From Coriobacteriaceae bacterium (lineage in GTDB: Bacteria; Actinomycetota; Coriobacteriia; Coriobacteriales; Coriobacteriaceae): a DNA stretch of 54,364 bases. The notes beneath the pieces are model-generated. The model had not been told where the DNA came from. It searched no databases and saw only the letters and a list, made by a program, of their open reading frames with translations. Location of the stretch: contig CABJEP010000001.1 in assembly GCA_902364645.1 (NCBI GenBank), positions 1 to 54,364 of the forward strand. Reading direction: 5' to 3'. The translations under genes and the position numbers were made by a program. Shown piece after piece: positions 95 to 46,180 of this stretch (its first letter is position 1; every line of letters begins with the position of its first letter).

Positions 95-1216
95 ATGCCA
101 AAGTATTCTACCGCGTTCGGGATGGACGTCCACCTGAGGTCGACCACCGTCTGCGCCCTCGACGCGGACACCGGCGAGGCCGTGACGAGGAGGTTCCCCG
201 GCAACCCCTGGGGCGAGATCGCCGGGTGGATGGATGGGTTCCCCGGGCCGTCGCTCGCGGCCTACGAGAGCGGCTACCTCGGCTTCGCCCCGCAAAGGGA
301 GCTCGCCGGGCTCGGCGTCGAGTGCGTCGTCGCCGCGGTCTCGAAGATCCCCAGGTCGGCCGCCGACTCGGCCTCCAAGAACGACAGGAACGACGCCGCC
401 AGGATGGCCAAGGCGATACTCGCCCACGACATCTCCCCCGTATGGGTCCCCTCCCCCGAGGTCGAAGGCATCAGGGACCTCGCCGGCGCCTACGACGGGG
501 CGACCGCGCGCCTGGCGACCGCCAAGCAGCGGCTGCTCGCCTTCCTCGCAAGGCGAGGGTTCGTCTACGGCGGCACCACGCCCGCCGGCAACCCGAGGAA
601 GTACTGGACCTACGACTTCCTGAGGTGGCTCGACAAGGTCAGGCCTGAGGACGATGGCGGGGTTCGGACGCTCGCCGCCCTGAGGAACGAGGTCGAGGCC
701 GCGGCGGAGGCCCGGGCGGACCTGCTCTCCGAGTACAGGGCAGCCGTGGATGCCAGCCCGATCGCCGCGGAGGTGGCCGCCCTCCAGTCGATCAAGGGCT
801 GCGCCTTCGCGCTGGCCGCAGCCTTCTCGGCCGAGGTCGGCGACTTCACGAGGTTCCGTTCCGGAAGGCAGGTCACGGCCTATTTCGGCCTCGCGCCGAG
901 TCAGAGGTCGAGTGGCGACTCCGTGCGGCTCGGAGGCATCAGCGGTGCGGGCAACGCGCTCGTGAGGAAGCTGGCCGTTGAGGGTTCATGGTGCTACGCC
1001 GCGGCACGGCACCAGCCGAAGCTCATGCCAAGGGACACGGGCGTGCCCCTCGAGATAAGGATGCACGGGAGGAAGGGGTCCGAGCGGCTCCTGCGGCGGC
1101 GCGAGGAGATGCTCGCCCGCGGCGTGCCCGCGGCGAAGGCCAACGCGGCCACCGCGGCCGAGCTCGTGAGGTGGCTCTGGGCCCTCGGCATGATGTGCCG
1201 GGAGGGCGCGGAATAG
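95..1216 (+). CDS. IS110 family transposase (DEDD recombinase)
   Basis: This 373-residue protein has the usual IS110 length and order of domains. The N-terminal RuvC-like DEDD domain carries the first Asp in GMDVH (residue 11), the Glu in AAYESGY, and the KNDRNDAARMAKA block. The C-terminal Transposase_20 domain follows, with QSIKGC and the GISGAGNALVRKL block, whose Ser is the presumed nucleophile. IS110 enzymes excise and insert elements as circles without conventional terminal inverted repeats, guided in studied members by an element-encoded bridge RNA. The ATG at 95 follows gggaggctccc. The frame is intact, so the copy may be active. Dense structured sequence lies on both sides, and a structured chromosomal repeat lies immediately to the right. 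Confidence 0.9.
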   Translation: MPKYSTAFGMDVHLRSTTVCALDADTGEAVTRRFPGNPWGEIAGWMDGFPGPSLAAYESGYLGFAPQRELAGLGVECVVAAVSKIPRSAADSASKNDRNDAARMAKAILAHDISPVWVPSPEVEGIRDLAGAYDGATARLATAKQRLLAFLARRGFVYGGTTPAGNPRKYWTYDFLRWLDKVRPEDDGGVRTLAALRNEVEAAAEARADLLSEYRAAVDASPIAAEVAALQSIKGCAFALAAAFSAEVGDFTRFRSGRQVTAYFGLAPSQRSSGDSVRLGGISGAGNALVRKLAVEGSWCYAAARHQPKLMPRDTGVPLEIRMHGRKGSERLLRRREEMLARGVPAAKANAATAAELVRWLWALGMMCREGAE

Positions 1217-1497
1217 ACATAGCCCCCGTCCCGGCGAGCCGGGCGGCCTTCGGGGATACCCCCTATTTCGCTGTGCGCGCGGAGCCCTCCGCATGCGCCT
1301 CGACAGACTTGGGGAACCCCGCCGAAGGAATGGAGTGCGGGCCGACAGAACGGTATCCGCGGATATGAGACTGAGCCGAAGGCGTCGACGACATGCCGGG
1401 GGCGGACCGGGACGGGTTCAACGGCAGGCCCCGCCGACCGATTGCAAGCGGTCGGCGGGGCCATTGTGGCTCTTGACAGCGGATTGGGTCATATGAG
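1217..1497 (+). mobile_element. IS110 right non-coding end
   Basis: No gene is seen here. The stretch contains a perfect 14-bp hairpin (1427-1440 with 1449-1462, loop 1441-1448). A consensus -35 box TTGACA follows at 1473-1478. In IS110 elements an outward -35 at the right end can join a -10 at the left end when the element circularises, creating a junction promoter. The exact right boundary cannot be fixed from one copy, but it probably lies shortly after 1478. Confidence 0.45.
1427..1462 (+). terminator. Perfect 14-bp GC-rich hairpin in IS110 3' region
   Basis: The arms GGCCCCGCCGACCG (1427-1440) and its exact complement (1449-1462) enclose an 8-nt loop. There is no T-run afterwards, so it could be a terminator, part of an IS-encoded RNA or an end-recognition structure. 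Confidence 0.5.
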
Positions 1498-1547
1498 CGA
1501 GCGCCCACCAGAGCGAGCAAGGTGCCTTCAGGCAAAATGGCGCCACA

Positions 1548-1707
1548 GGTTGAGCATAAGTCAGCGAGCGGGCCGCATTTGAGACAAGGTGACGTGAAAC
1601 GAAAGGGCGCTGACCTTCTGGTCGCGCCCTTGAAGTTGAACGTCAGATTGTCCAAATGCGGCCCGCGCAGCGTCGAGCCGTTACGCGGTTTGGTAAAACC
1701 GCGTAAC
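1548..1707 (-). repeat. Structured 3'-UTR repeat, copy 1
   Basis: First of three copies (others at 4811-4957 and 44031-44190). A 12-bp stem (1570-1581 with 1653-1664), a single bulged A at 1582 and a 5-bp stem (1583-1587 with 1648-1652) enclose an inner hairpin (1605-1615 with 1620-1629). A second, perfect 12-bp hairpin (1680-1691 with 1696-1707) ends 2 nt before the stop codon of the minus-strand dehydrogenase gene. The flanks, cagcgagcg on one side and cgcgcagcgtcga on the other, are shared with copy 3. No T-run follows the hairpins, so this is not a classical intrinsic terminator. Confidence 0.85.
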
Positions 1708-1709
1708 CC

Positions 1710-2510
1710 CTAAGGCCGCTGGCCCATGCCACCCTCGAGGGTGACGGTCTCGCCGTTCATGTACTTAAAGTCGGGACCGCAGAGCTGAACGACCACGCGG
1801 CCGATTTCCTTCTCGACGTCGCCGTAGTGACCAGCCGGCGGCATGTGGACGTTGGCCTTGAACGCCTCGGGGTAGGCATCCTGGAAGTTCTCGAGCGCAG
1901 CGGTCCAAGCAAGCGGGCACACGATGTTGACGTTGATGCCGTCGGGGCCCCACTCGTTGGCGGCAACGCGGGTCAGGCCGCGGATGCCCTCCTTGGCGGC
2001 AGCATAGCTGCACTGGCCATAGTTGCCAAACAGGCCGGCGCCCGAGGCAAAGTTGACCACGGAGCCCTTGGTCTCCTTCAGGTGCGGATAGGCCTTCTGC
2101 ATGTACAGATAGGTAGCATACAGACCGGAGTAAATGGCCAGGTTAAACTGGTCCATGGTGTGATCGGCGATGGTCACGCCCGAGGCGCTGGCCTGAGCAT
2201 TGTTGACGACGGCGTCGATGCGGCCGAACTCCTCAATGGCCTTGTCGATGACGTTCTGGACGACGGCCTCGTTGTCCTGACCAGCTGAGACATCGGCCTG
2301 AACAGGCAGAACCTTGACGCCGTACTCGGCCTCGAGGGACTCCTTGGCAGCCTCGAGCTTGGCAACGTTGCGGCCGGTAATAACGAGGTTTGCGCCCTCC
2401 TTGGCAAAAGCGATATCGATGCCGTAACCGATGGAGCCAGCGGAACCGTCCTTGAGCGTGGCCTTGCCGCCGCCGGTGACGATCACGGTCTTACCAGTGA
2501 AAAGTCCCAT
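1710..2510 (-). CDS. Short-chain dehydrogenase, probable 12alpha-hydroxysteroid dehydrogenase
   Basis: This is a 266-residue classical SDR with a Rossmann start (VIVTGGG...SIGYG), NNAQAS, the serine block NFASGAGLF and the catalytic YAAAK. The Arg in ITGRN suggests NADP(H) preference. The stretches NNAQASASG, IYSGLYAT, NFASGAGLFGN, CSYAAAKEGIRGL and the C-terminus LEGGMGQRP closely match my recollection of clostridial NADP-dependent 12alpha-hydroxysteroid dehydrogenase, which interconverts the 12alpha-hydroxyl of bile acids and 12-oxo forms. The substrate is therefore inferred by similarity, and a related steroid or other alcohol is possible. Compared with the clostridial enzyme there are about seven extra residues inside the glycine motif. 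The ATG at 2510 follows aaagga with 6-nt spacing. The stop codon is followed directly by structured repeat copy 1, with an IS110 element beyond it. Confidence 0.7.
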   Translation of the reverse strand: MGLFTGKTVIVTGGGKATLKDGSAGSIGYGIDIAFAKEGANLVITGRNVAKLEAAKESLEAEYGVKVLPVQADVSAGQDNEAVVQNVIDKAIEEFGRIDAVVNNAQASASGVTIADHTMDQFNLAIYSGLYATYLYMQKAYPHLKETKGSVVNFASGAGLFGNYGQCSYAAAKEGIRGLTRVAANEWGPDGINVNIVCPLAWTAALENFQDAYPEAFKANVHMPPAGHYGDVEKEIGRVVVQLCGPDFKYMNGETVTLEGGMGQRP

Positions 2511-2804
2511 ACAAAGTCCTTTCGAATCGCGACGGGCACGCCCGCCGACTGCGCGTATCCAACTTCACGCGCCAAAAGCTGAAATGCAACTTTAGCGTGT
2601 TCAAGTGAAAAATAAAGACCGCAGCAGGCGAACGGCGCAACGTCATTCGGCGAAGGGATTGTCAAGTACAAACTGGATAAAGCGGCCGAGTTGTTGTTAT
2701 CAGATCGAGCCATCGAACACGTTTTGAAACTTTGCTGCGGCGCGCGGGATGTCGGCGCGAGACTTTATCATAGGGTGACAAACAACGATGAGGAGCACAT
2801 GCCT

Positions 2805-4568
2805 ATGACAGACGAGCTGGACCCCCAGACTCAACAGCATATTGATGATCCCGCAGACGTCACCGCAGATACTGACGCTGTGACCTGCGATGGTATCGAC
2901 ATCGACGACCCCATCTTGGACGAAAGCGCTACGGCGGAAACCCCCGAAACAGAAAACGCCGATGAGCAAAACGACGATGCGCCCGCTCAGGACGACGCCC
3001 CTGTACAGGACGACGCCCCGCAAGCTGCGGGCCCCATCGAGGTGTCTTCGGAAGAAGAGCTCGATGCCGTCATGGACTCCATGATGGACGCCGTCAAAGC
3101 GATGAAAGACGCCGTGTCCGATGCCGATATTGATGCCGAGGAAGAGGAGGCTGCCGAGGCCGCCTCGACCTTTGTGCCCGGCGAGACTCCGGTTGCCGAC
3201 CAGGGCAGCACCATGCCCTCGTTTCTGCAGCTCGAGCACCCCACGATTGGCGCCGATGCGGTCGATCCGCACGCAGCAGGCTTTTCTGTGGTCGAGGGCG
3301 GTACCGGCAATATCGCCGCGCCGCAGGCTGACGATGCGGACGCTGCCGACACCGCTCGCCCGACCGCCCCGCACTCCCCCGCCGCGAGCCACGATCTGGG
3401 GACCGCTGTCTCGAACACTGCGAACGCCGTGGGCACCTTTATCGCCCAAGGTGCCTCGGCCATGCGCGAGATGAACGCCGCGAAAAAGGCACTTGCCGAT
3501 GCCCGCGCCCACCTGGCCGAACTTGAGCAGCGCATTACCGATCAGACCGAGGAACTCGAGACGCGCCAGGATATCGCAGGCCGCTACGACCAGATCGTCG
3601 CCGACCAGCGTCAGGCGATCGCCACAGCGCAAAAGACCGCTGCGGCAGCCGAGATTGACCGTGATGCCCACGCCGCCAAAGCGACAGAGCTCAAGAGTCA
3701 GTTCGAACAAATGAAGACAGAGGATGACGCGACTGAGCTCCGCCTGAAGGCCGCGCTCGACGCCGTGGAGGCCCGCGAGGCGAGCTCGCGCGAGACCGGC
3801 AACCGCCTCGTTCGACGTCTTGAGGATTCCAAGCGTATCCGCGACAAGGTGAAGGCCGAGCGAGACGCCGGCATTGCGGCCGCACAACAAACCGTCGACG
3901 CCACGCGCGCCCAGCTCGAGACGCTGCGTCATGAGTATGCCGAGCTGCAACGCAATCCCTCGGCAAATCCCGCCAGCTATACGGTGCGCACCAGCGAGCT
4001 CTCGATGCAGATCTCCGACACGGCAGATGCCCTGCGTAAAGCCGAAGAAGATGTCCCGCGCATCACCGCCGACCTTGAGCACTCGCTTGCCGCAGCCGAG
4101 CAGGCCGTCGAGCAGGCTCAAGCCCCCATTGCCGAAGCCAAACGCGCACACCAAGCCGTGACGACTGAGGCCGATGCCGCGCGCGACGAGCTGCAGACGG
4201 CGAAAACTGCCGCCACGACGCGCCAGCGCGAACTGCGCGAGAAGATCGCCGCCGAGGACAAGGCACGCCGCGACCAAGAGCAAAGCATCGCCAACGCCCA
4301 AGCAGATGCCGCACATGCACAGTCGATCATCGAGCAGGCGACCGAGGTACATGACCATCCAGAGATCACTGAGTCGCTTGCAGGATCCTTGGCCCGAGAC
4401 AAAGCCGAACACGCCGAGACCGAGCGAGAAGTCGCCCAGCTCGAGGCCACCGAGGACGCGGTGCGCGAGCGTACCCGCGACTCACGCATCAAATTCACCG
4501 GCGCCATCGTCTGCATCGTCGCCGCAATCCTGGTGATCATCCTAGTCTGGCTGTTCGCAAGCAAGTAA
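2805..4568 (+). CDS. Tail-anchored coiled-coil membrane protein
   Basis: The protein has about 587 residues and I do not recognise its family. Residues 1-210 are acidic and of low complexity, with repeats such as DDAPVQDDAP. Residues 220-555 are rich in Ala, Glu, Gln and Arg with heptad character, which predicts a long coiled coil. A single hydrophobic helix (AIVCIVAAILVIILVWLFA) ends the chain two residues before the C-terminus, so the bulk is probably cytoplasmic. Aggag at 2791-2795 favours the ATG at 2805; the ATG at 2799 is too close to it, and an in-frame upstream start at 2691 has no ribosome-binding site. It is transcribed divergently from the dehydrogenase gene. A long hairpin follows the stop. 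A structural or envelope-linked role is only a guess. Confidence 0.75.
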   Translation: MTDELDPQTQQHIDDPADVTADTDAVTCDGIDIDDPILDESATAETPETENADEQNDDAPAQDDAPVQDDAPQAAGPIEVSSEEELDAVMDSMMDAVKAMKDAVSDADIDAEEEEAAEAASTFVPGETPVADQGSTMPSFLQLEHPTIGADAVDPHAAGFSVVEGGTGNIAAPQADDADAADTARPTAPHSPAASHDLGTAVSNTANAVGTFIAQGASAMREMNAAKKALADARAHLAELEQRITDQTEELETRQDIAGRYDQIVADQRQAIATAQKTAAAAEIDRDAHAAKATELKSQFEQMKTEDDATELRLKAALDAVEAREASSRETGNRLVRRLEDSKRIRDKVKAERDAGIAAAQQTVDATRAQLETLRHEYAELQRNPSANPASYTVRTSELSMQISDTADALRKAEEDVPRITADLEHSLAAAEQAVEQAQAPIAEAKRAHQAVTTEADAARDELQTAKTAATTRQRELREKIAAEDKARRDQEQSIANAQADAAHAQSIIEQATEVHDHPEITESLAGSLARDKAEHAETEREVAQLEATEDAVRERTRDSRIKFTGAIVCIVAAILVIILVWLFASK

Positions 4569-4594
4569 ACCAACCGCCAAAAAACGCTCAACGC

Positions 4595-4660
4595 AGTTGC
4601 GGTGAGATAGTTCCTGTTTAGCCCCAAAAAGGCCAATTCAAGAACTATCTCACCGCAACT
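4595..4660. terminator. Perfect 19-bp inverted repeat after the coiled-coil gene
   Basis: AGTTGCGGTGAGATAGTTC (4595-4613) is exactly complementary to 4642-4660, with a 28-nt loop. It lies 27 nt past the stop codon. It can act as a transcription stop or mRNA end, but no U-tract follows, and the perfect long arms also fit a small mobile palindrome. Confidence 0.6.
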
Positions 4661-4702
4661 TATTTAGATCGACGCAAGGCAACCTACCCCTCTTGCACCG
4701 AT

Positions 4703-4771
4703 CTCATGACATAAGGACTGTCCCCAGGTGCCGGCACAAAAGGAACGTCCCCAAGTGCCAAGTGCCCAATG
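4703..4771. repeat. REP-like GGGGAC repeat pair
   Basis: Two similar units, ggactgtccccaggtgcc and ggaacgtccccaagtgcc, are separated by ggcacaaaa. Similar units are common intergenic repeats in clostridia and coriobacteria, by my recollection. No coding signal is seen. Confidence 0.45.
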
Positions 4772-4810
4772 ACTACTCAACAACCACGGCAACACCGATG
4801 TAATGGCAGA

Positions 4811-4957
4811 GTCAGCGAGCGGGTCACATTTGAGACAAGGTGACGTGAAACGAAAGGGCGCTGACCTTCTGGTCGCGCCCTTGAAGTTGAACGTCAGATT
4901 GTCCAAATGCGGCCCGCGCAGCGTCGACCGGTTACGGCGTTTGTAAAACGCCGTAAC
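4811..4957 (-). repeat. Structured 3'-UTR repeat, copy 2 (partly decayed)
   Basis: The sequence is nearly identical to copy 1, but the outer left flank is missing and the left arm carries changes leaving one wobble and one mismatch. The terminal hairpin (4931-4942 with 4946-4957) has GGCG where copy 1 has GCGG, with the matching change in the other arm, so all 12 pairs are kept. It directly abuts the queA stop codon (4958-4960). Confidence 0.8.
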
Positions 4958-6175
4958 CTACTGAATGAGCATGGCGTCGCCAAAGCTGAAGAAGCGGTAG
5001 CGCTCCTCGATAGCAGCAGCGTAGGCATCCATGATCTGGTCGCGGGTGGCAAGTGCGCTCACGAGCATCATGAGCGTGGAGCGCGGCACGTGGAAGTTCG
5101 TGATCAGCGCGTCTACCACGTGATAGGTCGAGCCGGGCATGAGGTAGAGCTGCGTCGTGGCGTTCTCGCGCACCACGATGTCACCGCGGCCAAGCGTGTC
5201 GGCTCCGTCCTCGCGGCCTTCAAAATAGCGCGCCGTCACGGCCGGATCGAACACCGGGGCTTCTGCGTCAAACGCGCTCTCGAGCGAGCGCACCGCGGTA
5301 GTGCCGACGGCGATCACACGATGACCCTCGGCTTTCGCCTTATGCACGGCGTCGACAACTTCCTGCGACACGTGGTAGCGCTCGGTGTGCATGACGTGCT
5401 GCGTGGGGTCGTCCTCCTCCACCAAGCGGAAGGTATCGATGCCCACCTCGAGCTCGACGGCGGCAAACTTCGCACCCTTGGCCTCGATAGCGGCCATGAG
5501 CTCGGAAGTAAAGTGCAGACCCGCCGTGGGAGCTGCAGCCGAGTGTTCCTCTTTCATGGCGTAGACGGTCTGGTACTTCTCGGGATCGCCCTCGTAATCG
5601 GTAATGTAGGGCGGCAGCGGCACGTGGCCGGCAGCATGGATGGCCTCGTCGAGCGTGCGCGGCTCGCCGGCGGCATTGCAACCGGCCGGCTCAAAACGCA
5701 CCAGGCGGCCGCCGCGGCTATCGGTGACAAAGTCGATGACCTCGGCCGTCAGCACCACGGGAGCCCCCTCGGGCGCATGGGCGCCGCCCGCACGATACTC
5801 AATCTGAGCACCGGGCTTCAGGCGCTTACCCGGCTTGACCAAGCACTCCCAAACATGGCCCAGCGGATCCACGTCCTCGCGGCGCTTGAGCAGCAGGGTC
5901 TCGACCACGCCGCCCGATCCCGTTTTACGACCGATCAGACGGGCCGGCATCACGCGCGTCTGATTGATGACGAGCACGTCGCCCGGCTCGATATAGTCGA
6001 TGATGTCGCGGAAGATGCGGTGCTCAACGGTACCGCCGTGCTCCAGCGGCGTTCCCGCCTGGGAGCCCTTGCGATCCACCACCAGCAGGCGGCAGGAGTC
6101 GCGCGGCTCGGCTGGAGCCTGGGCGATCAGTTCCTCAGGAAGGTTGTAGTCAAAATCATCGGTACGCATAGACAC
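4958..6175 (-). CDS. queA: S-adenosylmethionine:tRNA ribosyltransferase-isomerase
   Basis: QueA transfers and isomerises the ribosyl group of SAM onto 7-aminomethyl-7-deazaguanine at tRNA position 34, giving epoxyqueuosine. The 405-residue protein has the family N-terminus DFDYNLPEELIAQ, the DVLVINQTRVMPARL block, HAAGHVPLPPYI, TAGLHFT and the C-terminal NFHVPRSTLMMLVSAL. Its length exceeds the usual 340-360 residues by small internal insertions. A GTG at 6175 is the better start, because aaggag lies 8 nt before it; the ATG at 6169 would be 14 nt away. It is downstream of queH, which acts on the product of QueA, so the last two queuosine steps are encoded together. The stop abuts structured repeat copy 2. 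Confidence 0.95.
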   Translation of the reverse strand: MSMRTDDFDYNLPEELIAQAPAEPRDSCRLLVVDRKGSQAGTPLEHGGTVEHRIFRDIIDYIEPGDVLVINQTRVMPARLIGRKTGSGGVVETLLLKRREDVDPLGHVWECLVKPGKRLKPGAQIEYRAGGAHAPEGAPVVLTAEVIDFVTDSRGGRLVRFEPAGCNAAGEPRTLDEAIHAAGHVPLPPYITDYEGDPEKYQTVYAMKEEHSAAAPTAGLHFTSELMAAIEAKGAKFAAVELEVGIDTFRLVEEDDPTQHVMHTERYHVSQEVVDAVHKAKAEGHRVIAVGTTAVRSLESAFDAEAPVFDPAVTARYFEGREDGADTLGRGDIVVRENATTQLYLMPGSTYHVVDALITNFHVPRSTLMMLVSALATRDQIMDAYAAAIEERYRFFSFGDAMLIQ

Positions 6176-35134: not shown

Positions 35135-35160
35135 AAAGGGCCGGTTGCACCCGGCCCTTT
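35135..35160. terminator. Hairpin after the 30-residue peptide
   Basis: AAAGGGCCGG (35135-35144) pairs perfectly with 35151-35160 around TTGCAC. The flanking A and T runs allow termination in either direction. Confidence 0.65.
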
Positions 35161-35389
35161 AGACGATAATACCTGCGTTGCCCGCGCTTCCAAAGTTGAC
35201 CGACTGAGGAGCGGGTTCCGCGGCACATCCTGATTTTACCCAGTGGCAAGGCTCTTTTACAGCCGTTCCACCGTTTATTTACATCTGCCAATCAAGACGA
35301 GACTACTACGCACCTTTATTACACACGATATTTTCAGCCTGGTATAACCAAGTTCAATAATAGAATGCAAATCCAACCACCGTGTCTGA
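35161..35389. other. Non-coding stretch without recognised features
   Basis: About 230 bp between the hairpin and the end of the SHOCT remnant. It is more AT-rich than average. Short frames here lack ribosome-binding sites and domain signals; an RNA antisense to the 30-residue peptide could start here but no promoter is clear. Confidence 0.4.
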
Positions 35390-43914: not shown

Positions 43915-44030
43915 GCCAACCTCCCCTCGCCACAAGCGCAGCGCAAGACAAGGCCCCGCGCATCATTCACGAACGTCTGTTCTAGAATAACACAATAGCG
44001 GCCGCATCTAGCAAGCAAGGTTGAACCATA

Positions 44031-44190
44031 GGTTGAGCATAAGTCAGCGAGCGAGTCCCTGCCGTGGCAAGGTGTCGCGAAAGAGGAGCGCCGCGTACTT
44101 TTGTACGCAAGCGACGGTTTGAGCGGCAGATTGCCCGGCAGGGGCTCGCGCAGCGTCGACTCGTTACGCGGTTTGGCAAAACCGCGTAAC
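44031..44190 (-). repeat. Structured 3'-UTR repeat, copy 3 (rewritten stems)
   Basis: The outer flanks equal copy 1, but the stem interior differs. A 12-bp stem (44053-44064 with 44136-44147), a single bulged T at 44065 and a 5-bp stem (44066-44070 with 44131-44135) reproduce the geometry of copy 1, and an inner GCGTAC/GTACGC hairpin (44093-44098 with 44103-44108) takes the place of its inner hairpin. The terminal 12-bp hairpin (44163-44174 with 44179-44190) ends 4 nt before the stop codon of the NAD synthetase-like gene. Confidence 0.85.
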
Positions 44191-44194
44191 CTTT

Positions 44195-46180
44195 TTAGTT
44201 CTGCGAGAAGAACGGGAACTGTCGGGGATCAACCGGCGGATGCGGCATCGGGCCACCCTGGGGCCCACCCTGCGGGCCACCCTGGCCGCCCATCATCTTA
44301 TCGATGGCGTCCTGAACCTCGCCCTCGAACTTTTTCATTCCCTCGTGTAAACGACGCTGACCGTCTTCAGAGCGCAACTCCTCCATTTGTTCGGGCGAAA
44401 TACCCAGTAGCTCGCCCAGCACGCCCATCATCTCGTTTCGCACGCGCTCACTAGTATCCTCGTCAGCAAAACGGCGCACCTCGGCGCGCGCCAGCGAATC
44501 GACCGTCATACGCTCCTTGCCGTTAAGCCCCAGGTCGGACCACGCGAGCATGTACGGCCAGGAGCGCTCGGCAAACGAACGGGACGAAACGATCGGCGCC
44601 GTCGGCAACATGCGGCGGGCAGCCTCACCCTGTCGAACGAGCATCAGCAGCAGCGAGCAGGCCTCAGGCTTGCCAGCGGCCATCGGGATGTCGTCGAAAG
44701 ATCGATTGCGGTCCACGTGCGCCTCAAGCGCGCCATCGATCTCACCCGGCTCGACCCCGCCGAGCAGCTGTGCCGCGCGGTCGAGCATATCGACCGGACC
44801 GTCGAGCGTCGAGAGCGCCTGCGCCAGCACTCGCTCCATACAATCTTCCACCGCGTTGAGCGTCACGAGCTCTTGGGGCACCACGGCAGACGTGCGGTTG
44901 CGCACGCGCGCCACAAACTCAAGCGTCGACAGGTACACATCGCCAAAGGGCGCATAATCGCCCTGGTAGCCGCCGCAAAGCGCCGGCGCCGCCAGTGCGT
45001 ACTCGGTTTTGGACAGCGGGCTCAGCGCCATCGCACCCAACTCGAGCGCCGTGTCCTCCAGCATGAGGCCCAGCGTGCGAGAGCGCAGGCGCTCGGCGTC
45101 GCCCGCCGACACATCGCGGTCGAGCACGCGCGCGGCATCCGGCGCATCGCGCTCAACCGTGCGAATATGCAGGCGCTCGGCAATGGCGCGAACGGCGGCA
45201 CAGCGAGCAGCCTCGGCCTCCTCCTGCGCCGGCGTAAAGATGCGGTTGCGCCCCAGCACCAGGCCAATCACATTACGTGGGCCCAGAGCGTCGACGGCCA
45301 GCGCCGCCAGCAGGGACGACGGCAAGTCGCCCTCGAGTGCCACCACGGCACGCGACGCACCGTGGGCCCGGGCGTTGTCGCGCACGGCGAGCACCAGCGC
45401 CTGCCACAGCCACTCCTCGGAACGGAACTCGGGCAGTTCGTGATCTTCCAGGGCATCGAGCATCACGCCGCGCTGAATCTCCTGAACCAGCAGGCTCTCC
45501 TCAAAACACGGCGCTTGGGCCACCACGCGACCGCAGTCGTCGAGCACAAACGAACCGCCGGTATACACCGACTCGTCATAGGCACCGACCGGCGCCATAC
45601 AGGCAAACCACACACTGCGCTTGGATGCGATCTTGCGGTAGGCGCCGCTGCGAACGGCGGCAATGGCGGCAGTCTCGCGGTCGGTCATGTCAAACGCATT
45701 GAATTGGAAATACGCAATGAGGTCAACACCGGTCGGCAACATCTCGAGTTCGCGGTCCAAGTCAAAAATCACGGCGATGCGCACGCCGTCCACGTCGAAC
45801 ACCGGCGGCGCCCAACGCGTGTCGTTGTTCTCGCCACGCTGCAGGGCAATGCTCGAACGCGCCGGCACCACATGACCGTCCTTGAGCATCATGTAGTCGA
45901 GCAGCGGCTGGCCCTCAAACGAAACCGCCGCGGGCACGATGCAGATCATGTCAAGCTCCTGGATACGCTCGGCGACACCAGTCAAGCCGGCAAGCATGTC
46001 GTGCTCAAAGTCGGCAGTGCCCACCAGGCCCCCGGGCATGGCGCCCATAAAGAGCGGAGCCGGAACGCACAGCACGCGCGCCCCGCGCTCGTGGGCCAGA
46101 CGAGCCTGGTCCTCGATGCGGCCGCAAATGCCCTCAATATCACCCAGGCGCATATCGATCTGTGCAAGCGCGAGCTTCAT
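44195..46180 (-). CDS. Degenerate glutamine-dependent NAD synthetase-like protein
   Basis: The 661-residue protein has the layout of NadE: an N-terminal nitrilase/amidase domain (MKLALAQIDMRLGDIEGI) and a C-terminal NAD synthetase domain (SSLLAALAVDALGPRNVIGLVLGRN). Both active sites look lost. The nitrilase Glu (PELxLxGY in the family) is Ala in VPAPLFMGAMPG, and the CED-type cysteine position reads VIFDLDRELE. The ATP pyrophosphatase loop SGGxDS reads EGDLPSS. The reading frame is long and intact, with an added Gly/Pro-rich tail, so it is retained rather than decaying. A structural, regulatory or nucleotide-binding role is possible; it is unlikely to make NAD. The ATG at 46180 follows ggaaaggg. 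Confidence 0.7.
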   Translation of the reverse strand: MKLALAQIDMRLGDIEGICGRIEDQARLAHERGARVLCVPAPLFMGAMPGGLVGTADFEHDMLAGLTGVAERIQELDMICIVPAAVSFEGQPLLDYMMLKDGHVVPARSSIALQRGENNDTRWAPPVFDVDGVRIAVIFDLDRELEMLPTGVDLIAYFQFNAFDMTDRETAAIAAVRSGAYRKIASKRSVWFACMAPVGAYDESVYTGGSFVLDDCGRVVAQAPCFEESLLVQEIQRGVMLDALEDHELPEFRSEEWLWQALVLAVRDNARAHGASRAVVALEGDLPSSLLAALAVDALGPRNVIGLVLGRNRIFTPAQEEAEAARCAAVRAIAERLHIRTVERDAPDAARVLDRDVSAGDAERLRSRTLGLMLEDTALELGAMALSPLSKTEYALAAPALCGGYQGDYAPFGDVYLSTLEFVARVRNRTSAVVPQELVTLNAVEDCMERVLAQALSTLDGPVDMLDRAAQLLGGVEPGEIDGALEAHVDRNRSFDDIPMAAGKPEACSLLLMLVRQGEAARRMLPTAPIVSSRSFAERSWPYMLAWSDLGLNGKERMTVDSLARAEVRRFADEDTSERVRNEMMGVLGELLGISPEQMEELRSEDGQRRLHEGMKKFEGEVQDAIDKMMGGQGGPQGGPQGGPMPHPPVDPRQFPFFSQN

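What the first reader, a model, noticed from the sequence alone, without database searches (positions are those of the whole stretch)
1548..1707. A family of structured 3'-UTR repeats with compensatory base-pair changes
Three copies (1548-1707, 4811-4957, 44031-44190) share conserved flanks and a two-part fold: a long stem with one bulged base and an inner hairpin, then a separate 12-bp hairpin. Comparing copies 1 and 3, 7 of 12 outer pairs differ; six are compensated double changes and one becomes a wobble. The 5-bp inner stem has another compensated change. Between copies 1 and 2 the terminal hairpin has two more. This is strong evidence that the structure, as RNA or single-stranded DNA, is under selection. 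I know no named family with this layout.
Basis: partly seen in the sequence, partly recalled or inferred. Interest (0 to 1): 0.85.

Follow-up and report, generated by a model that had tools for sequence, protein, structure and literature searches.

The report
REP-like folded repeats of gut Coriobacteriia
Three copies of a 150-base DNA repeat in this gut bacterium belong to a large, unnamed family that mostly sits just behind genes, keeps its folded shape while its sequence changes, and seems to be shaped on one DNA strand only.

Summary
The three copies share conserved flanks, a ~110-nt hairpin and a 12-bp terminal hairpin, and the compensated changes are as described. They belong to a large dispersed family. 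A covariance model hits 39 of 43 genomes of the genus, with 28-56 hits in 23 of them. A broader model hits 120 of 296 genomes of the class. On 36 diverse copies 93.0% of base-pair cells are paired and 42 of 47 pairs have double changes; slid controls give 36-43%. No Rfam family matches.

The better-folded strand is antisense to the gene usually abutted: 41 of 41 sequence clusters and 52 of 52 copies from two other genomes. The terminal hairpin lies within 8 nt of an opposite-strand stop codon at 29 of 43 sites. Sites vary in occupancy and subtype between close species. In two of three genomes tested, orientation follows replication more closely than genes do.

Best reading: a REP/BIME-like palindromic DNA repeat, maintained as a folded single strand, that also sits in mRNA as a 3' or intercistronic hairpin. 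No mobilising enzyme was identified (only Y1/RAYT genes were searched). New variant of a known kind; function untested.

The parts
1562..1674 (+). Copy 1 long imperfect hairpin (CAGCGAGCG ... GCAGCGTC)
1680..1707 (+). Copy 1 terminal 12-bp hairpin, 2 nt from the stop codon of the opposite-strand gene 1710-2510
1531..1561 (+). Copy 1 conserved left end
1496..1528 (+). Remnant (5' arm only) of another copy, joined to the end of the IS110 element
   Evidence: read directly from sequence
4813..4925 (+). Copy 2 long hairpin
4930..4958 (+). Copy 2 terminal hairpin, adjoining (its last base is in) the stop codon of queA (4958-6175, -)
44045..44157 (+). Copy 3 long hairpin (different subtype)
44163..44190 (+). 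Copy 3 terminal hairpin; the only one of the three followed by a T run on +
44014..44044 (+). Copy 3 conserved left end
1710..2510 (-). Short-chain dehydrogenase-like gene abutted by copy 1
   Evidence: the 25 best matches shown are below their curated cut-offs
4958..6175 (-). queA, abutted by copy 2
   Evidence: above cut-off
44195..46180 (-). Gene abutted by copy 3 (only a below-cut-off match to NAD+ synthase)
95..1216 (+). IS110-family RNA-guided transposase gene of an IS whose end is joined to this repeat

Best explanation
This is a family of dispersed, palindromic, non-coding DNA repeats of about 150-190 bp in Coriobacteriia that works like REP/BIME elements. Shown: multicopy, in several families of the class, folded, covarying, mostly sited at 3' gene ends, varying in occupancy and subtype between close species, and joined at one and the same base to an IS110 element in several places. 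Also shown: the fold is consistently better on the strand antisense to the gene usually abutted. Inferred: selection acts on that strand as folded single-stranded DNA, when the element is copied, converted or mobilised by an enzyme not yet identified. Inferred: the element survives mainly behind genes that run with the replication fork, where it is then co-transcribed in the other sense as a 3' or intercistronic hairpin that could modulate mRNA ends.
For: Covariation: 42 of 47 pairs with double change, 388 cells against 114 in shuffles (0 of 500), slid controls 36-43% paired. Strand: the antisense strand folds better in 87 of 87 foldable copies of 91 unique ones, in 41 of 41 clusters (Collinsella-genus copies plus Slackia) and in 52 of 52 copies from G129 and G232; with DNA parameters 41 of 41 and 52 of 52. 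G.U 114 against A.C 25 cells. Position: 29 of 43 non-redundant sites within 8 nt of an opposite-strand stop; 22 of 40 copies read in G129 (of 48) and 9 of 12 in G232 (of 17) within -20..+10. In G232 all 12 have an opposite-strand gene on both sides, so + transcription would be antisense. No sigma-70-like site around the 3 window copies. Turnover: gene 44195 site filled in 6 and empty in 16 of 23 sites, 1 cut (plus L260, which its pattern missed and one search shows); queA site holds 3 intact subtypes. Polarity: 39 of 42 listed copies (of 48) in G129 against 57.9% leading-strand genes, P 5e-7. IS110 junction identical in 10 loci, 4 distinct flanks.
Against: No mobilising enzyme: Y1/RAYT genes, the only class searched for, are flanked by other (GGGAC) repeats. 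No target duplication or sharp ends were seen at the one site compared. In G059 polarity (24-25 of 28) is no more than gene bias (82% of genes; P 0.23). The better-folding strand lies on the leading-strand template, the orientation in which folded-strand recombination is rarer for attC sites (PMC5371416, passages) and, as I recall, for IS200/605. 14 of 43 sites are not flush, although three of these are tandems whose outer hairpin is flush. Positions between gyrB and gyrA and between fabG and fabF also fit a cis RNA function.
Confidence: 0.5

Rival explanations
1. A cis-acting RNA element of the abutting gene: the hairpins form in the gene's own mRNA just behind the stop codon and protect its 3' end, or separate expression of two cistrons, as some E. 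coli REPs do.
For: Flush with stop codons at 29 of 43 sites; between gyrB and gyrA in L541 (0 nt from the gyrB stop, 31 nt before the first ATG of the gyrA frame) and between fabG and fabF in L363, and by sequence ends in L364 and L375. REPs within 15 nt of a stop are reported to lower translation (PMC12306157, passages).
Against: The mRNA-sense strand folds worse in every cluster and copy tested and has about half as many G.U pairs (50 of 1495 v 97 of 1619; 78 of 2042 v 182 of 2211). Lack of selection on that strand for pairing is the simplest reading.
Confidence: 0.25
2. A stand-alone non-coding RNA transcribed from the folded (+) strand, antisense to the gene end.
For: The + strand carries the G.U pairs and conserved tandem G.A mismatches typical of RNA motifs.
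Against: No promoter-like site near the 3 window copies; in G232, 12 of 12 copies read have both neighbours on the other strand; upstream genes are mostly on the other strand (23 of 37 sites with a called upstream gene, of 43).
Confidence: 0.1
3. No selection for structure: template-switch (quasi-palindrome) mutation rewrites one arm from the other and produces double changes by itself.
For: Copy L084 has one arm replaced by the complement of the other, giving a near-perfect palindrome.
Against: Arm correction would erase the internal purine mismatches, yet by eye they persist in nearly all subtypes; it gives no strand bias of G.U over A.C or of fold energy.
Confidence: 0.07
4. A RAYT-mobilised REP family proper.
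For: The 6 of 43 genus genomes without a Y1_Tnp match all have fewer than 3 element hits, against 6 of the 37 with one (Fisher P 1.5e-4). Shared ancestry was not corrected for, and Y1 matches include IS200-type genes.
Against: The flanks of the 30 Y1/RAYT loci fetched (one genome may have more) lack the element except where it belongs to the queA site of G063; RAYT genes carry other repeats; the one weak model hit lies inside a RAYT reading frame.
Confidence: 0.08

Closest known systems
REP / BIME elements (GTAG- and CGTC-tagged REPs)
   Same: Dispersed palindromes, tens of copies per genome, mostly intergenic, close to 3' ends of upstream genes, sometimes supplying the stop codon (PMC3733652: abstract, passages, section 15). 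REPs as targets of IS elements (PMC1525189, search listing only).
   Different: About 110-nt stem plus a second hairpin instead of 20-40 bp; stems covary widely with fixed purine mismatches; large strand asymmetry; no GTAG tag; a CGTC lies between the hairpins but about 5 nt from the stem; no associated RAYT found in the genus.
Integron attC sites
   Same: Recognised by folded structure rather than sequence and recombined through one strand, the bottom strand (PMC5371416, passages); close behind a gene, bottom strand antisense to it (recalled).
   Different: The abutted genes named here are core chromosomal genes (gyrB, fabG, queA); no integrase was searched for; no R-box-like ends seen by eye. 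In attC sites the strand difference in fold energy is only about 2 kcal/mol and reverses in chromosomal integrons (same passages).
MITEs such as ERIC, NEMIS/Correia and RU (recalled)
   Same: Size of 100-200 bp, foldable, intergenic, often transcribed.
   Different: No terminal inverted repeats with target duplication seen; no parent transposon found.
Collinsella-1 RNA (RF01700)
   Same: Same host group and window.
   Different: Separate locus (35138-35303); its model does not match the element.

Membership tests
REP element (GTAG/CGTC superfamilies) | Dispersed palindrome in many copies | tested here: met
REP element (GTAG/CGTC superfamilies) | 20-40 bp length | tested here: not met
   about 150 bp
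REP element (GTAG/CGTC superfamilies) | GTAG or CGTC tag at the foot of the stem | tested here: not met
   no GTAG at the stem foot; CGTC present but about 5 nt from the terminal stem, read by eye
REP element (GTAG/CGTC superfamilies) | Close to 3' ends of upstream genes | tested here: met
   29 of 43 sites
RAYT-linked REP | RAYT gene flanked by the repeat | tested here: not met
   (genus of the window only)
Integron attC site | One folded strand recombined by an integron integrase | not testable with these tools
   the antisense strand folds better here, which is compatible but not the defining test
Integron attC site | R/L boxes and an integron integrase | not tested
   no integrase search was made; no R-box-like ends seen by eye
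MITE | Terminal inverted repeats and target duplication | tested here: inconclusive
   empty and filled sites compared for one gene; no clean duplication
Intrinsic terminator | GC-rich hairpin followed by a T run | tested here: not met
   for the element's hairpins met only on + of copy 3 among the three window copies
Any Rfam 15 family | Match at gathering score | tested here: not met
   window and 9 loci; best sub-threshold matches for copy 1 E 0.52 and 0.8

The most novel reading that the evidence does not exclude
A Coriobacteriia-specific kind of folded-single-strand DNA element: a long hairpin built on repeated tandem G.A pairs, recognised on one strand only by an unidentified recombinase or transposase, and inserted with fixed polarity behind genes that run with the replication fork. 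It would be attC-like in logic but unrelated in parts.
Probability: 0.2. Interest if true: 0.85.

Novelty: new variant of a known kind. Interest (0 to 1): 0.6.

Why it matters
It would add a strongly structured repeat family, spread over several families of the class, to common human gut bacteria, where neither Rfam nor the papers searched here describe one. Its strand asymmetry gives a sequence-only test of whether selection acts on DNA or mRNA. Its positions between gyrB and gyrA and between fabG and fabF could affect expression of core operons. As a repeated junction partner of an IS110 element it is also a natural target set for RNA-guided recombinases.

Tried and rejected
Intrinsic terminator: rejected, no T run on either strand of the element's hairpins except + of copy 3. 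Stop-codon sequence as the insertion target: rejected, TAG 22, TAA 6 and TGA 1 among the 29 flush sites, with TAG also the commonest stop by eye among the window genes listed. RAYT: a presence correlation was noted, then the RAYT flanks were found to carry other repeats; the L297 hit (16.4 bits) lies inside the RAYT frame. IS110 guide match to the repeat: longest shared word 9, reached by 92 of 1000 shuffles, so not shown. Phages: no match. Plasmids: one record, a Collinsella aerofaciens replicon, 13 places. Viral contigs: one exact pattern of one subtype, none. The first gene caller went wrong on G232 and was retrained from the window's genes; G129 distances were the same.

Papers. PMC3733652: outline and abstract, passages, section 15. 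PMC12306157, PMC8040213, PMC2864571, PMC5371416: passages only. PMC1525189 and PMC11208160: search listing only. Statements that nothing is in print rest on searches; supplementary tables (for example the candidate RNAs of PMC8040213) could not be opened.

Full report
OBSERVATION. Copies at 1560-1708, 4811-4957 and 44043-44191 align end to end and each folds far better than shuffles on + (z -11.7, -9.8, -8.7). On + the long stem carries fixed internal loops of purines: an AGGU/AGAU loop (G.A, G.G) and a GA/GA loop, with further tandem G.A pairs in other subtypes (read by eye). The terminal hairpin is a 12-bp palindrome with a 3-4 nt loop.

FAMILY. An exact pattern found copies in 16 of 58 relatives, all 16 among the 35 of the genus, in at least six subtypes by eye. 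Model R1, from 15 copies, 23 of 47 pairs with double changes, hits 39 of 43 genus genomes at E <= 0.01; 23 of 43 have 28-56 hits and 12 have fewer than 3. These counts include opposite-strand and partial hits and are capped at 72 scored candidates. One closed genome, G059, has 28 full-length places of 85 bits or more. The named species Slackia isoflavoniconvertens (Eggerthellaceae) carries a 104.8-bit copy. Model R2, from 36 diverse copies, hits 120 of 296 genomes of the class at E <= 1e-5, in 39 of 125 genera. All 120 carry the tool's family labels f1, f2, f5 or f7, within one order as labelled; about 10 candidates per genome were scored. E-values of home-made models are rough.

COVARIATION. 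On A7: 93.0% of 1533 cells paired, 42 of 47 pairs changed on both sides, 388 double-change cells against 114.3 +/- 8.3 shuffled, 0 of 500 shuffles reaching any of the five measures. Sliding the partner by 1-3 columns gives 36.3-43.3%. A7 was fitted to a structure model, which leans towards it; A3 is a plain MAFFT alignment and also shows double changes at 23 of 47 pairs.

STRAND. With RNA parameters the + strand (antisense to the gene usually abutted) is more stable in 87 of 87 copies folded (91 unique of 104; 4 could not be cut to the hairpin), in 41 of 41 clusters of 127 sequences from the genus and Slackia (mean -11.1 kcal/mol) and in 52 of 52 copies from G129 and G232 (mean -18.4). With DNA parameters the means are -4.7 and -10.3, again 41 of 41 and 52 of 52. 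G.U cells outnumber A.C cells 114 to 25. The terminal hairpin shows no strand bias. So selection for pairing is visible on the strand that is not the mRNA of the neighbouring gene.

POSITION. 104 copies were reduced to 43 non-redundant sites (copies with under 100 nt of downstream sequence were dropped first). Of the 43, 29 have the hairpin end within -8..+8 nt of an opposite-strand stop (TAG 22, TAA 6, TGA 1), 7 have such a stop elsewhere, 5 have a same-strand gene there and 2 have no called gene. Three of the 14 misses (L216, L074, L073) are tandems whose outer hairpin is flush. Others sit before a start codon, for example a hypA-like gene in L014 (below cut-off) and, by eye, a QueA-like start in Slackia L109. 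In G129 22 of 40 copies read (of 48) and in G232 9 of 12 (of 17) lie within -20..+10; in 6 and 3 of them the called stop is inside the terminal hairpin. Gene calls are my own simple caller's. In L541 the element fills the gap between gyrB and gyrA (scores below the best cut-offs because both genes are cut by the stretch). By sequence ends, copies also lie behind gyrB in L058, L059 and L357 and between fabG and fabF in L364 and L375; in L363 fabG and fabF are above cut-off. REPs are known to sit near 3' ends and to supply stop codons (PMC3733652, section read), so this trait files the element beside REPs. One count for E. coli puts only 446 of 4,072 REPs within 15 nt of a stop, an older one 260 of 496 (PMC12306157, passages).

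TURNOVER. At the gene-44195 site 5 copies were called by script, plus L260 which the script's pattern missed but one search shows, so 6 of 23 filled, 16 empty, 1 cut by the contig end. At queA the 20 scoreable of 22 sites (2 cut) are filled, in 7 clusters: 3 intact subtypes (8, 4 and 4 sites) and 4 single sites, an IS-interrupted copy, a chimera and two tandems. At the dehydrogenase site 20 of 21 are filled (the other is a low-complexity contig end) in 4 clusters, one of them a deletion form. L211/L086 is a chimera whose outer stem no longer pairs; L084 is a near-perfect palindrome. Terminal hairpins with the long stem deleted occur. This points to recombination, deletion and insertion at these sites; no clean target duplication was seen.

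REPLICATION. In G059 the dnaA gene is at 1.75 Mb. Copies are oriented against the leading strand in 24-25 of 28, no more than expected from genes (96 of 117 sampled, 82%; P 0.23). In G129, 39 of 42 listed (of 48) copies do so, while 62 of 107 sampled genes (57.9%) are leading and 27 of 38 called upstream neighbours lie on the strand opposite the element (P 5e-7 and 5e-4). In G232, 12 of 12 listed (of 17), genes 89 of 129 (P 0.012). Origin and terminus in G129 and G232 were placed by GC skew on sampled stretches with an eye on where the elements switch strand, so this is suggestive, not settled. The better-folding strand is on the leading-strand template. Either copies in the other orientation are lost because a stable hairpin on the lagging-strand template is unstable (recalled general knowledge), or insertion itself is polar.

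MOBILITY. An IS110-family transposase (window 95-1216) ends at a junction CATATG|AGCGA with an element remnant. The same junction occurs in 10 loci, some probably of one genome, with 4 distinct flanks. The far end of this IS was not seen. REPs as IS targets are in print (PMC1525189, PMC11208160; listing only). No guide match could be shown. The Y1/RAYT loci fetched do not carry the element as a flank. Other transposase classes were not searched; a mobilising enzyme remains unknown.

CONCLUSION. A real, large family of REP-like folded repeats, undescribed within the searches listed. Shown: distribution, fold, covariation, strand asymmetry, position, turnover. Inferred: action as single-stranded DNA. 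Untested: any function.

Noticed in passing
window 95-1216 and junction at 1495/1496: IS110-family element whose end is joined to a remnant of the repeat at the same base as in 9 other loci (4 distinct flanks in all).
   Followed up: partly
window 35138-35303 (-): Collinsella-1 RNA (RF01700), 162 bits.
   Followed up: no
window 4712-4790: A second repeat type (GGACTGTCCCC / GGAACGTCCCC ... AATGACTA) directly upstream of copy 2; similar GGGAC repeats flank RAYT genes elsewhere in the genus.
   Followed up: partly
window 4590-4665: Another long inverted repeat (AGTTGCGGTGAGATAGTTC ... GAACTATCTCACCGCAACT) behind the gene 2691-4568.
   Followed up: no
L212 and L271 (genome G063, queA site): An IS200-like element appears to be inserted inside the repeat next to queA.
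   Followed up: partly
L370, L377 and G062/G017 hits: In other species of the genus the long hairpin occurs without the terminal hairpin, often as tandem pairs about 100-130 nt apart, still behind stop codons.
   Followed up: partly
G059 0.38-0.91 Mb: None of the 48 model hits lies in about 0.5 Mb on the side opposite dnaA.
   Followed up: no
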